A DNA stretch of 45,627 bases from Campylobacteraceae bacterium (GTDB taxonomy: Bacteria; Campylobacterota; Campylobacteria; Campylobacterales; Campylobacteraceae). The DNA lies in NCBI GenBank assembly GCA_031274495.1, contig JAISQB010000019.1, positions 1-45,627 on the forward strand. Reading direction: 5' to 3'. The translations under genes were made by a program, and so were the position numbers. The first letter of the stretch is position 1. Each line of letters opens with the position of its first letter. Under the pieces are notes generated by a model, which ran no database searches, had not been told where the DNA came from, and was given only the letters and a program-made list of their open reading frames with translations. Positions 1 through 3,990 of the stretch are shown one piece after another.

Positions 1-67
1 GTAGGGGGTTCGAACCCCTGACCTCAACGCTGCCAGCGTTGCGCTCTCCCAGCTGAGCTAACACCCC
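1..67 (-). tRNA. tRNA-Ala(GGC), 3' end cut by window edge
   Basis: On the minus strand the sequence reads GGGGTGT for the 5' acceptor arm, a standard D arm, an anticodon stem CAACG/CGTTG with loop CTGGCAG (anticodon GGC, reading GCC Ala codons), and a T arm AGGGG-TTCGAAC-CCCCT. The window ends after the first two bases of the 3' acceptor strand, so about five pairing bases and the discriminator lie outside. No other tRNA was seen next to it. Confidence 0.95.
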
Positions 68-85
68 GAAAGTTACAAGAGCAAA

Positions 86-91
86 ATTATA
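86..91 (-). promoter_or_regulatory. -10 box for tRNA-Ala
   Basis: TATAAT on the minus strand, about 20 bp upstream of the tRNA 5' end. The position where a -35 box would sit (roughly 107-114) is inside the first Cas12a-like repeat, so that repeat overlaps the tRNA promoter. Inferred from motif and spacing only. Confidence 0.55.
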
Positions 92-106
92 CAAGCAGAA
101 TACTTA

Positions 107-367
107 ATCTACAATAGTAAAAAATTGATTTTCGGGCATAGATGAATGCCCTTAGTGGGTACAAAAAGCAAAGTAGTTTATAAAACCAAATCTTAGCTGT
201 GTCCATAGACGCAGATAAATATCTACGATGGTGAAAATTGATTGCGGCGCAATCATCTACGATAAGTAGAAATTGATTTGTGGACATAGATGATACGGAC
301 GACACAGATGTCGTAACATACGACCTGCAACAGTAGAAATTACTTTGCAAGCATATGGGAAGCTTGC
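107..367 (-). repeat. Degenerate Cas12a-type crRNA-like repeats with interleaved hairpins
   Basis: Four copies of one motif lie at about 107-130, 221-243, 255-278 and 324-345. On the minus strand the best copy reads AATTTCTACTTATCGTAGAT (stem TCTAC/GTAGA), the form of a type V-A (Cas12a) crRNA repeat core. The copy at 324-342 reads AATTTCTACTGTTGCAGGT, two bases from the core I recall for Francisella Cas12a. The other two are weaker (TTTAC/GTAGA with a wobble; TTCAC/GTAGA with a mismatch). Start-to-start spacings are 114, 34 and 69 bp, so this is not a regular array. Different short perfect or near-perfect hairpins lie between copies. No cas gene is in the window. It could be a relic array, a repeat family of other origin, or chance similarity. 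Confidence 0.5.
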
Positions 368-463: not shown

Positions 464-1366
464 CTATCTGATGTACCTCTCCTCCACCTCATTTAGCGCG
501 GCTTCTAAAATGGATATGTTCAGTTTATCGCTCTTCGCTATATCCAAAAGCCCCTCTTTGATAAGGTTAAATACTATCCGCTTCTTCTCTTGTTCGCTTT
601 TTGCCGCGTACTCGTGCGCGTTTGCGAGTGCGGCAAAGCCGTAAACGAACCATTTTTCGGTTGCGCCGGCGTGGGAGAGCGCGTTTTCGTAGCTATCGGC
701 GACGCTGATATATAGGTGTGTGTAGTTTGGGAGTTTAAACTTTAACTCCCTTAACCGCCGCAAGATAAGCCCCGTGAGCATATCGCTGTAAGGGGTAAAA
801 TATTGGTGTCCGACACCGTCTAAATGGTAGTAAAACCTTATATCGCGGATGAGTTTATTGGGCTCTATCTTGGCACTTGCCCTCGCCTCTCTATCTTTTA
901 GGATTTTCTCCAAAAGATTTTGGCGCGCCCTCTTCTCGTACTCTTTATTCATCTCCCTAAGCTTCTCGATGCTCAGCAAATCTTGCACCTTTGAAAGCTT
1001 TTGTCTCATCGCTATAAACGCCTCTCTATTTTTATACTTTGCGTCCAAAATGTCTATCACTTCGTACAATTTATCAAAAAGCGTGTTTAATGGTAACATA
1101 TCTAAGTTTCGCAGCTTCTCAAAAGTCACGGTGATGGTAAAACACGAGCGCTTTTTGTAAAATTTCACAAACGGCAAGTCGCTGTACCACTTCATAAATG
1201 TATCATCTTTTGAATAACTTTTGGGCGGATAGGCAAAAACTATCTCCAATTCGCCAAACGGTATATCCGCCCACGCATCCGATAGATAGTCGTGAAAATA
1301 CTCAAACGGCGCTCTAAGCCCCGCGCCGTATTGATTTCGCGTCAACAGTTTAACACCCACTCTCAT
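464..1366 (-). CDS. Conserved hypothetical protein, 300 aa
   Basis: I do not recognise the family. The open frame extends up to 1444, but the Met at 1366 follows GGGAG at a good distance and starts one base after the stop of the upstream gene; the longer form would overlap it by 77 bp. The protein has no signal peptide or membrane segment. It is charged, with an aromatic N-terminal third, a Lys/Arg/Glu-rich helical (possibly coiled-coil) stretch around residues 125-185, and a helical C-terminus. It is the last gene of a dnaG, PP-loop ATPase, unknown-gene operon, which suggests co-expression, but gives no firm function. A link to tRNA sulfur chemistry or replication would be guesswork. Confidence 0.8.
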   Translation of the reverse strand: MRVGVKLLTRNQYGAGLRAPFEYFHDYLSDAWADIPFGELEIVFAYPPKSYSKDDTFMKWYSDLPFVKFYKKRSCFTITVTFEKLRNLDMLPLNTLFDKLYEVIDILDAKYKNREAFIAMRQKLSKVQDLLSIEKLREMNKEYEKRARQNLLEKILKDREARASAKIEPNKLIRDIRFYYHLDGVGHQYFTPYSDMLTGLILRRLRELKFKLPNYTHLYISVADSYENALSHAGATEKWFVYGFAALANAHEYAAKSEQEKKRIVFNLIKEGLLDIAKSDKLNISILEAALNEVEERYIR

Positions 1367-1367
1367 T

Positions 1368-2354
1368 TTAAACTCCCACCATATACTCTCTTGACCCCTC
1401 TTTAGCGCCCGCAGCGCAAACCTCATAAACCTCGCCCGCGACAAGCACGCCGTGCGTTTTATCTTTGTCTATCTTCGTAAAGGATAGGGCTATTTGTGCA
1501 GCTAAAATCTTATCCTCATACGAAGCGTTTTTTGAGATTTTGCCGTAAGGTGCGGGCAAATCCTCGCCTAAAAATATCTCCTCAAAACCGCTGTTTTTTA
1601 AACTCTGCAAAGTGTCGTTTTCGCTCTCGTTGCGTCCCAATATAAGTTTAGCGCCATTTGGCAAACGAAAGTGTCTGCCTATCTTTAAAAGTGCTATATC
1701 CTCCACACGCAAGGGCTGATACGTTACAAAATCTTTCAGTTTCGCGCTAAAATATATATCCGTCAGCAGACAGCCCCCGCCAGGACTGGCGTACTCTTCA
1801 AACCCAAACTCCTCCGCCAAAGCTATCTGCCTCTTTCTATCCCTACCCTCGATATCAAGCAGCTTTTCCCTATCTACCCACCCTTCTATCTCGGGCTTTG
1901 TGGGCGGCAAAAGTTTCGCGCTCATAGGACGCAGGATAAGCCCGTCGTCATCGCTGCTCAGTTCCAGCACGCTTTTTAAAGCTTTGGAGTTTTGACTCAT
2001 CGGACGCTGCCCCAAAACTTCGCCCGTGATGATAAAGTTAGCCCCATATTCACCCAGCAACGCTTTTGCCTTTTTCATCATAAAGCCGTGACAGTCGATA
2101 CAGGGGTTGAAGCGCTTGCCGTATCCGTATTTTGGGGAAAAGAGCACCTCTTTTAAGTACTCCTCCCTGGCGTCTATCGCTTCAAACTCAGCCCCCGCCG
2201 CCTTCGCGCGGGAGCTAAAAAGAGCCGACATATCTTTCGTGCCGCCAAATCCTATGTTTATATTGATAGCGGTAACATTGATGTTTTGATTTGTGATAAT
2301 CCTCATAGCGAGCATACTATCCAGCCCGCCGCTAAAAAGCGCTAAAGCTCTCAT
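1368..2354 (-). CDS. MnmA/ThiI-like PP-loop ATPase, probable tRNA thiolation enzyme
   Basis: 328 aa. The N-terminus has the PP-loop SGGLDS at residues 8-13, which binds ATP and adenylates a substrate. An NPCIDCH segment near residue 83 matches the NPCxxC Cys motif of the 2-thiouridylase MnmA, and GGGCLLTD farther on supplies a second candidate Cys, as in sulfur-transfer enzymes. The C-terminal third differs from MnmA and may be an RNA-binding module of the NFACT-R type, which I believe accompanies this subfamily. By inference it modifies tRNA with sulfur, but its target base cannot be read from the sequence, and it need not be the main MnmA of the cell. The start overlaps the end of dnaG by 23 bp, so the two are translationally coupled. 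Confidence 0.75.
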   Translation of the reverse strand: MRALALFSGGLDSMLAMRIITNQNINVTAININIGFGGTKDMSALFSSRAKAAGAEFEAIDAREEYLKEVLFSPKYGYGKRFNPCIDCHGFMMKKAKALLGEYGANFIITGEVLGQRPMSQNSKALKSVLELSSDDDGLILRPMSAKLLPPTKPEIEGWVDREKLLDIEGRDRKRQIALAEEFGFEEYASPGGGCLLTDIYFSAKLKDFVTYQPLRVEDIALLKIGRHFRLPNGAKLILGRNESENDTLQSLKNSGFEEIFLGEDLPAPYGKISKNASYEDKILAAQIALSFTKIDKDKTHGVLVAGEVYEVCAAGAKEGSREYMVGV

Positions 2355-3990
2355 ACGGTACCAATTCTCCTCCCCTCAAACGGGTTATAATATCTCTTAT
2401 TTTTCTAAATAAAAAGCTCTTTTTGTCAAAGTCGAGCTGCGTGTTTTTTTTGATTTTTTCAAGTTTCTCTTCGTAAAACAGATGCAAAAACGGTATCAGC
2501 GCGGCTATAAGTTCGCTCTCTTCATACACCTTTATCTCTTCAAGCAGCAAAAGCCGCCTAAGACTTGGATGCTCTATCTGCTCATCCAACAGCAACGACA
2601 ACTCTTCGCCGTGTACTTTGAACATAGATGTGTCTATGATATCCATCACCGTAGCGATGAGGTTTGGCTTCACAAGCAGCGTTTTTACGATGGAAAGCTC
2701 CAGCATATCCTCAAATCCGCCACGCGATGCGCCGCTTCTGATGGGGCGTTTGGTCCCAAGTGTGATGAGATTTGCCCTGATGCCGAGCATACTCGCCAAC
2801 ATACCTACATAATTATACGACAGCACGGATGGGAGCGTGCGAAGATACGCGATAGACTCTTCCAACGCCTTTTGTTTTTCGTGCGCGTCTTTTAGGTCGT
2901 ATTTGCCCGCTATGTGTTCAAGGCAAAATTCTATAAACTCTTTGGGGCTGTTGTAGAGCGCATTTAGTTTGTCTATGAGCCCTTTTTGCACCATATCGGC
3001 AGGGTCCATATCGCCGCTGAAAAGTACCACGCCGCCATTGATATTGTGCAAAGAGAGAAGCTTTGAAGCTTTAAACGCCGCCTCGATACCGGGCGCGTCG
3101 CCGTCGTATGAGAGTATGACTTTTGGTTCCCCTCTTGTCAAAAGCGGTATATGCTCATTTGTAAGAGCCGTCCCCAAAGTCGCCACCGCTTCGTTAAATC
3201 CCGCCTGATGGAGCATTATGACATCCAGATATCCCTCGCAGACGATAATCTTTTTGCTTCTCATAATAGACTCTCTGGCAAGATGGTAGCCGTATAAAAG
3301 CCTTGATTTGTTAAATACTTTTGACTGGGGCGAGTTAATATATTTTGAGGGGTGGTTCGTGATGGTGCGCCCGCCAAATCCGACGACCCTGCCGCTTGGG
3401 GCGTATATGGGAAAGGTGATGCGTTCAATAAATCTTGCATATTCATTGCCGTTATCATTAATGCCGATAACGCCAAGCTCTATCGCTTCGCCGCGCGCGA
3501 AAAACCGTTGCTTTAAAAAGTTCAAAGTCGCGTAAGATGCCGGCGCGTAGCCTATCTCAAACTTTTGTATGGAGGATTGTCCGATGCCCCTTTGGGTAAG
3601 ATAAGACAAAGCTTCGGGCGTTTTGTCAAGATTTTGCGTGAAAAAGAGATTTAACTGTTCTAATATCTTTTTATCGGGCTTTCTCTCTTCGCCGCCCCTG
3701 CTGTAAGTGAGGGCGAAATTGCTCATCGAGGCTATCTTTTCGATAGCTTCCGGATAGGTCAACTTCTCATACTCCATCACAAATTTTATCGCGTCCCCGC
3801 CCGCGCCGCACGCAAAACAGTGGTATATCTGCTTTGACGGGCTCACGTGGAGGCTTGGCGTAGTGTCGTCGTGAAACGGGCAGACAGCTTTGAAATTCGC
3901 GCCGCTTCTCTTAAGCTCCAGATAATTGCCGACAATATCAACTATATCTATACGTTGTTTAAGTGTTTCAATTGAGCTTTGTTCTATCAT
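2332..3990 (-). CDS. dnaG: DNA primase DnaG
   Basis: 552 aa, making RNA primers at the replication fork. The N-terminal CHC2-type zinc site is C37, H40, C58 and C61. The catalytic core follows, with GFGGRT near 204-209 and the TOPRIM acidic residues E252 (EGYLDVI) and D296/D298 (DGD). The C-terminal region, expected to bind the DnaB helicase, is less conserved. The start agrees with other Campylobacterota primases as I know them. No Shine-Dalgarno sequence precedes the ATG, and the -10 box lies so close (3998-4003) that the mRNA may be leaderless. First gene of a three-gene leftward operon, divergent from the lapB-like gene. Confidence 0.97.
   Translation of the reverse strand: MIEQSSIETLKQRIDIVDIVGNYLELKRSGANFKAVCPFHDDTTPSLHVSPSKQIYHCFACGAGGDAIKFVMEYEKLTYPEAIEKIASMSNFALTYSRGGEERKPDKKILEQLNLFFTQNLDKTPEALSYLTQRGIGQSSIQKFEIGYAPASYATLNFLKQRFFARGEAIELGVIGINDNGNEYARFIERITFPIYAPSGRVVGFGGRTITNHPSKYINSPQSKVFNKSRLLYGYHLARESIMRSKKIIVCEGYLDVIMLHQAGFNEAVATLGTALTNEHIPLLTRGEPKVILSYDGDAPGIEAAFKASKLLSLHNINGGVVLFSGDMDPADMVQKGLIDKLNALYNSPKEFIEFCLEHIAGKYDLKDAHEKQKALEESIAYLRTLPSVLSYNYVGMLASMLGIRANLITLGTKRPIRSGASRGGFEDMLELSIVKTLLVKPNLIATVMDIIDTSMFKVHGEELSLLLDEQIEHPSLRRLLLLEEIKVYEESELIAALIPFLHLFYEEKLEKIKKNTQLDFDKKSFLFRKIRDIITRLRGGELVPYESFSAF

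What the first reader, a model, noticed from the sequence alone, without database searches (positions are those of the whole stretch)
107..345. Orphan Cas12a-like crRNA repeats beside a tRNA gene
Seen: four related motifs in one orientation (minus strand). The best has the exact crRNA core form AATTTCTACT...GTAGAT with a perfect 5-bp stem, and another differs by two bases from the Francisella-type core. Known: Cas12a processes repeats with this UCUAC-loop-GUAGA stem, and some Campylobacterota carry Cas12a. Inferred: a decayed array, or a host set of decoy/guide-like RNAs, since no cas gene lies nearby and spacings (114, 34, 69) are irregular. Alternatively a different hairpin repeat family that resembles it by chance.
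Basis: partly seen in the sequence, partly recalled or inferred. Interest (0 to 1): 0.7.

Follow-up and report, generated by a model that had tools for sequence, protein, structure and literature searches.

The report
Decayed Cas12a CRISPR array, tRNA-Ala flank
Just before a tRNA-Ala gene lie the worn remains of a small Cas12a-type CRISPR array, in a bacterial genus where intact Cas12a arrays are common; it is probably a dead relic and not a new RNA system.

Summary
Four Cas12a-type repeat cores lie on the minus strand at 341-323, 274-255, 239-221 and 126-107. Scored with a matrix built from real repeats of the same genus, they rank 1, 2, 3 and 5 in the whole window. Their summed score is 80 bits, against a maximum of 28 on 120 simulated strands.

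Copies 2 and 4 are homologous over 39 nt (79% identity), and the homology ends at the canonical repeat ends. Copies 1 and 2 are 67 nt apart; intact arrays in the genus have periods of 62-68 nt.

The genus is rich in type V-A systems: four of 14 genomes carry near-complete cas12a genes, and at least eight carry arrays or remnants. This genome holds a frameshifted cas12a N-terminus, then a second cas12a start cut off at a contig end. Upstream lies a solitary repeat whose guide seed matches the cas12a promoter behind a TTTA PAM, the signature of the known CreR autoregulator.

The window cluster has no leader, no adjacent cas genes, two broken stems, one lost spacer, and a terminal repeat abutting the conserved tRNA-Ala promoter. 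Best reading: a decayed, cas-less V-A array. Chance hairpins remain the main rival; function as guide or decoy RNA is unsupported.

The parts
323..358 (-). R1: degenerate V-A repeat; core 341-323 AATTTCTACTGTTGCAGGT, 5' half CCATATGCTTGCAAAGT
   Evidence: 19.0-bit core, rank 2 in window; 16-nt match with R2 at spacing 67; 5' half best matches genus repeat GTCTAGACTCTCAAATT, 9/17
292..322 (-). former spacer between R1 and R2, about 31 nt, of normal V-A length; palindromic
   Evidence: lies between the repeat ends; 24/26 match to an unannotated gut phage scaffold at E=0.02, without a PAM
255..291 (-). R2: best-preserved repeat, ATCTATGTCCACAAATCAATTTCTACTTATCGTAGAT, intact UCUAC/GUAGA stem
   Evidence: 28.6-bit core, best in window; exact core match; 39-nt 79% repeat with R4; handle folds at -4.0 kcal/mol
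221..256 (-). R3: degenerate repeat abutting R2 with no spacer; core AATTTTCACCATCGTAGAT, broken stem
   Evidence: 13.9-bit core; 17-nt 82% match with R4; no stem predicted
175..210 (-). possible fifth repeat remnant (R3b): 5' half TCTATGGACACA kept, 3' half lost; 67 nt before R4
   Evidence: 12-nt direct repeat with R2 (D5); register 209 to 142 is 67 nt; inference
107..143 (-). R4: terminal degenerate repeat ATCTATGCCCGAAAATCAATTTTTTACTATTGTAGAT, abutting the tRNA-Ala promoter
   Evidence: 18.7-bit core, 15.9 bits with the covariance model; 39-nt repeat with R2
68..106 (-). tRNA-Ala promoter, vertically inherited (TAAGTATTCTGCTTGTATAAT)
   Evidence: conserved in G001, G002, G006, G008 as TAAGCATTTGACTTGTATAAT or nearly so; clear homology stops at the 3' end of R4
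1..67 (-). tRNA-Ala, anticodon GGC read from the loop, truncated by the contig end
   Evidence: Rfam RF00005, 49.4 bits
464..1444 (-). accessory ORF of up to 326 aa, probable start near 1366; present only in this genome within the genus; family unknown
   Evidence: no Pfam, PADLOC, phage, plasmid or PDB match and only insignificant PHROG matches; homologs in G161 and G080 (50% and 43% identity) without nearby repeats

Best explanation
The cluster is the remains of a small type V-A (Cas12a) CRISPR array of four or five repeats, read on the minus strand. It has lost its leader and cas genes and is decaying between an accessory gene and the tRNA-Ala promoter. It would once have been transcribed and cut by Cas12a at each UCUAC-loop-GUAGA handle. 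Today only R2 has a fully intact handle and R4 a weakened one. R2 is followed by a self-pairing stretch and by R3 without a spacer, so it should give no useful guide. Shown: motif similarity, clustering, register and period of the repeats, V-A systems in the genus, and cas12a remnants plus a CreR-like element in this genome. Inferred: common descent with a real array, and loss of function.
For: The motifs are among the top-scoring V-A cores in the window and cluster far beyond chance. R2 and R4 are a 39-nt direct repeat at 79% identity, ending at the canonical repeat ends; the best 36-nt self-match is 28/36 against a maximum of 26/36 in 300 shuffles. R1 to R2 and R3b to R4 are 67 nt apart; intact genus arrays show 62-68 nt. 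The 5' halves are related in register (R3/R4 10/17, R1/R4 9/17, R2/R4 14/17), and R1, R2 and R4 are all closest to the same genus repeat type. A two-repeat stretch of the G008 array aligns with R1-spacer-R2 at about 70% over 94 nt. Genus: cas12a above the family cut-off in 4 of 14 genomes and arrays with 36-nt repeats in many. This genome: a cas12a fragment, a second cas12a start and a CreR-like element on C43. Clear homology with the relatives' tRNA-Ala promoter stops at the 3' end of R4. Cas-less arrays of one or two repeats also occur in G004 and G013, where no cas12a was found.
Against: The 5' halves do not carry the genus hallmark GTCTAGACTC; the full-length matrix gains nothing from them for R2, and the covariance model ranks R2 only second and R4 fifth in the genome, with E of 0.5 and 3.3. 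No leader is present and no spacer has a convincing target. The region holds six perfect hairpins of at least 6 bp, against 1.0 expected, which a dead array does not explain. No intact array with this 5' half was found.
Confidence: 0.7

Rival explanations
1. A hairpin-rich intergenic region near tRNA-Ala in which one chance Cas12a-like core (R2) was partly duplicated locally, with R4 being an upstream extension of the tRNA promoter; no CRISPR ancestry.
For: Six perfect hairpins against 1.0 expected, and fold z-score -4.5. Exact cores occur by chance about 0.2 times per genus genome. R2 and R4 are homologous, hence not independent. AAAATYRATT upstream of the tRNA promoter also occurs in G006 and G008.
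Against: R1 carries the 14-mer AATTTCTACTGTTG of canonical genus repeats, and R4 carries the canonical TACTATTGTAGAT ending. R2 has neither loop, so the copies resemble real repeats separately. The period is 67 nt and the homology ends at canonical repeat ends. The genus and the genome have V-A parts.
Confidence: 0.23
2. A functional set of crRNA-like RNAs: guide RNAs of CreR or CreA type, or repeat mimics (Racr) that occupy Cas12a.
For: R2 keeps a perfect handle; CreR-like guidance exists in this genome at cas12a; V-A Racrs are documented (PMC10651486).
Against: No TTTV-plus-9-nt targets for the R2 or R3 guides in the assembly and none with 6-nt seeds at the cas12a promoter. R1 and R3 lack stable handles and the R2 guide is a closed hairpin. 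No promoter-like site on the minus strand. The nearest upstream genes are ordinary chromosomal genes.
Confidence: 0.07

Closest known systems
Type V-A (Cas12a) CRISPR arrays of the same genus (e.g. G008 repeat GTCTAGACTCTCAAATTAATTTCTACTTTTGTAGAT)
   Same: Core AATTTCTACT-loop-GTAGAT, 36-nt unit in register, one orientation, about 67-nt period
   Different: Divergent 5' half, repeats only partly conserved, one lost spacer, no leader, no adjacent cas genes
Cas-less remnants in the genus (G004 C31, C5, C25; G013 C136)
   Same: One good repeat followed by degenerate copies; no cas12a found in those genomes
   Different: They keep the canonical GTCTAGAC 5' half in at least one copy, and G004 C31 and G013 keep the leader, so they look younger
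CreR, the crRNA-like autorepressor of type V-A (reviewed in PMC12737573)
   Same: Repeat core outside an array
   Different: CreR represses the cas promoter through a guide that matches it; the solitary repeat on C43 fits that, the window copies have no such target
Racr, solitary repeat units of phages (PMC10651486)
   Same: Repeat-like element without cas genes
   Different: Racrs are solitary units in viral genomes, often just downstream of a promoter; here there are four decayed copies between chromosomal genes

Membership tests
Type V-A CRISPR array | Repeat 3' end AATTTCTACT-N3..5-GTAGAT with a 5-bp stem | tested here: met
   Met exactly by R2; R1, R3 and R4 degenerate
Type V-A CRISPR array | Near-identical 36-nt repeats | tested here: not met
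   R2 and R4 79% over 39 nt; the other pairs weaker. So it is not an intact array; the claim is descent from one
Type V-A CRISPR array | Regular spacing with unique spacers of about 26-32 nt | tested here: inconclusive
   67 nt for R1-R2; 35 and about 113 nt elsewhere, or 67 for R3b-R4 if R3b is real
Type V-A CRISPR array | Leader upstream | tested here: not met
   No genus leader sequence upstream of R1
Type V-A CRISPR array | cas12a (with cas1, cas2, cas4) adjacent or in the genome | tested here: inconclusive
   cas12a not on this contig; on C43 a broken cas12a N-terminus and a second start at the contig edge; the only cas1 found, on C45, appears to belong to another group. cas2 and cas4 not searched
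CreR / CreA | Guide seed matching a PAM-flanked promoter target | tested here: not met
   None for the window copies where tested (R1 and R4 guides only locally); met for the C43 solitary repeat
Racr | Solitary repeat mimic on a phage or plasmid that inhibits Cas12a | not testable with these tools
   Location is chromosomal with four copies; inhibition needs an experiment

The most novel reading that the evidence does not exclude
A retained cluster of degenerate Cas12a repeats alternating with small hairpins, made as one RNA upstream of tRNA-Ala, that binds Cas12a without giving guides: a chromosomal titrator of Cas12a.
Probability: 0.05. Interest if true: 0.65.

Novelty: new member of a known kind. 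Interest (0 to 1): 0.3.

Why it matters
It shows type V-A immunity in different states within one genus: intact loci, remnants of one or two repeats, and this apparently older relic. It also warns that isolated Cas12a-like cores can be leftovers or chance, since exact 16-base matches outside arrays arise about once per five genomes here. The more useful by-product is the CreR-like element before cas12a, whose seed and promoter target change together across four species and which is therefore testable.

Tried and rejected
A multi-copy hairpin or repeat family was rejected: exact and two-mismatch searches of the genome give no other similar cluster. A functional pair with the neighbouring ORF was rejected: its homologs have no such repeats nearby. 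Guide targets for the R2 and R3 guides: none. Spacer matches in phages: only one marginal hit, E=0.02, 24/26, that leaves out the first five bases of the spacer and has no PAM. Intact arrays with the same 5' half in reference genomes or viral contigs: none; the two pattern matches are single cores in apparently unrelated DNA, one in a Staphylococcaceae genome and one in a viral contig. A first covariance model had its stem off by one column and was rebuilt. Two Pfam calls on the ORF homologs failed on frame errors and were not repeated.

Full report
Observation. On the minus strand between tRNA-Ala (67-1) and an ORF ending at 464 lie four sequences like the 3' part of a Cas12a repeat. Scored with a matrix from 15 distinct V-A repeats of the same genus, the cores reach 19.0, 28.6, 13.9 and 18.7 bits, ranks 2, 1, 5 and 3 in the whole window on either strand. 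The cluster sums to 80.2 bits, against at most 27.8 on 120 simulated strands. The simulated strands keep first-order composition only, so the comparison ignores local duplication; that matters, because R2 and R4 are clearly homologous.

Are they repeats of CRISPR kind? R2 (291-255) and R4 (143-107) form a 39-nt direct repeat at 79% identity that starts within about two bases of the expected 5' end of a 36-nt V-A repeat and stops exactly at GTAGAT. The best 36-nt self-match is 28/36, against a maximum of 26/36 in 300 shuffles. R1 and R2 share CAAA..AATTTCTACT at a distance of 67 nt, and a partial copy of the 5' half (TCTATGGACACA, 209) lies 67 nt before that of R4. Intact arrays in the genus have periods of 62-68 nt. 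The 5' halves are related to each other in register (14/17, 10/17, 9/17), and the best genus match of R1, R2 and R4 is the same repeat type, GTCTAGACTCTCAAATT, though weakly (9-10 of 17). R1 and R4 each carry canonical loop sequence that R2 lacks, so they are not simply copies of R2.

Surroundings. In relatives G006 and G008 the NFACT/ThiI-like gene (window 1368-2354) lies directly upstream of tRNA-Ala; here an extra ORF and the cluster sit between them. The tRNA promoter TAAGTATTCTGCTTGTATAAT is conserved in four relatives; clear similarity ends at the 3' end of R4, apart from a weak AAAATYRATT match further up in G006 and G008. The extra ORF has good homologs only outside the genus among 299 genomes of the order (G161, G080), plus a weak partial match in G014; the two good homologs have no such repeats nearby.

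Type V-A in the genus and in this genome. Four of 14 genus genomes carry cas12a above the family cut-off, and many carry arrays with 36-nt repeats, most of the form GTCTAGACTC-N7-AATTTCTACTNTTGTAGAT. Two genomes without a detected cas12a (G004, G013) keep remnants of one or two repeats, so array loss is ordinary here; G013 is only 62% complete. This genome has no intact array in the assembly, but contig C43 ends in a frameshifted cas12a N-terminus of about 115 residues followed by a second cas12a start, MATKFLRDFNNLYSVQKTLRFELRPQ, that runs off the contig. A functional cas12a in the organism can therefore not be excluded. The only cas1 found, on C45, groups by score with a cas1 of the relatives that lies away from their V-A loci (inference from scores and location).

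CreR-like element. Upstream of cas12a lies a solitary repeat, about 90-120 nt before its target in the cas12a promoter. In this genome its guide TATGTATTG matches TTTA-TATGTATTG, overlapping a TTGACA -35-like box; G007 (TGTGAGTTA) and G008 (CGTGTGTTA) match for nine bases behind TTTA, G003 with one mismatch. Shuffled guides reach the same in 0.15-0.25% of trials per genome. Guide and target change together between species. CreR is described for type V-A as a crRNA-like RNA that, with Cas12a, represses the cas promoter (PMC12737573).

Function of the window cluster. R2 has a good handle (-4.0 kcal/mol) and R4 a weaker one (-2.2); R1 and R3 have none worth the name, and the R2 guide folds on itself. 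The R2 and R3 guides have no TTTV-plus-9-nt target in the assembly; the R1 and R4 guides were tested only locally. No minus-strand promoter-like site was found. The simplest account is a dead array. What it does not explain is the excess of small perfect hairpins (six against 1.0 expected; fold z-score -4.5); two relatives' upstream regions show weaker folding (-1.2 and -2.0).

Verdict. Decayed, cas-less type V-A array, confidence 0.7; a new member of a known kind, of modest interest.

Noticed in passing
G000 C43:641-450 (L066, L002), also L067, L069, L070: Solitary Cas12a repeat upstream of cas12a whose guide seed (about 9 nt) matches the cas12a promoter behind TTTA in four species (one with a mismatch), with guide and target changing together: a CreR-like autoregulator.
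   Followed up: yes
G000 C43:1-450 (L040): Frameshifted cas12a N-terminal fragment directly followed by a second cas12a start that runs off the contig.
   Followed up: partly
window 464-1444 minus: Accessory gene of unknown family, inserted between the NFACT/ThiI-like gene and tRNA-Ala; good homologs (43-50% identity) only in another family of the order (G161, G080).
   Followed up: partly
L064 (G080 C86), around 1400-3100: The homolog of the accessory gene is flanked by repeated copies of a segment with AAAACCGCAATGAAAAACGAAGAAAAAGAAAGG, as if in a row of duplicated or cassette-like genes.
   Followed up: no
L072 (G004 C31:3016), L068 (G011 C117): Other V-A loci in the genus also lie near tRNA genes: a remnant about 500 nt from tRNA-Pro and a cas12a about 360 nt from tRNA-Gln.
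   Followed up: no
window 460-100 minus: Six perfect hairpins of at least 6 bp within 401 nt, one expected; not explained by a dead array.
   Followed up: partly
L008 (G011 C26:43182), L033 (G004 C31:61273): Solitary exact Cas12a cores away from arrays, L008 just upstream of an ATG; could be chance or CreA-like.
   Followed up: no
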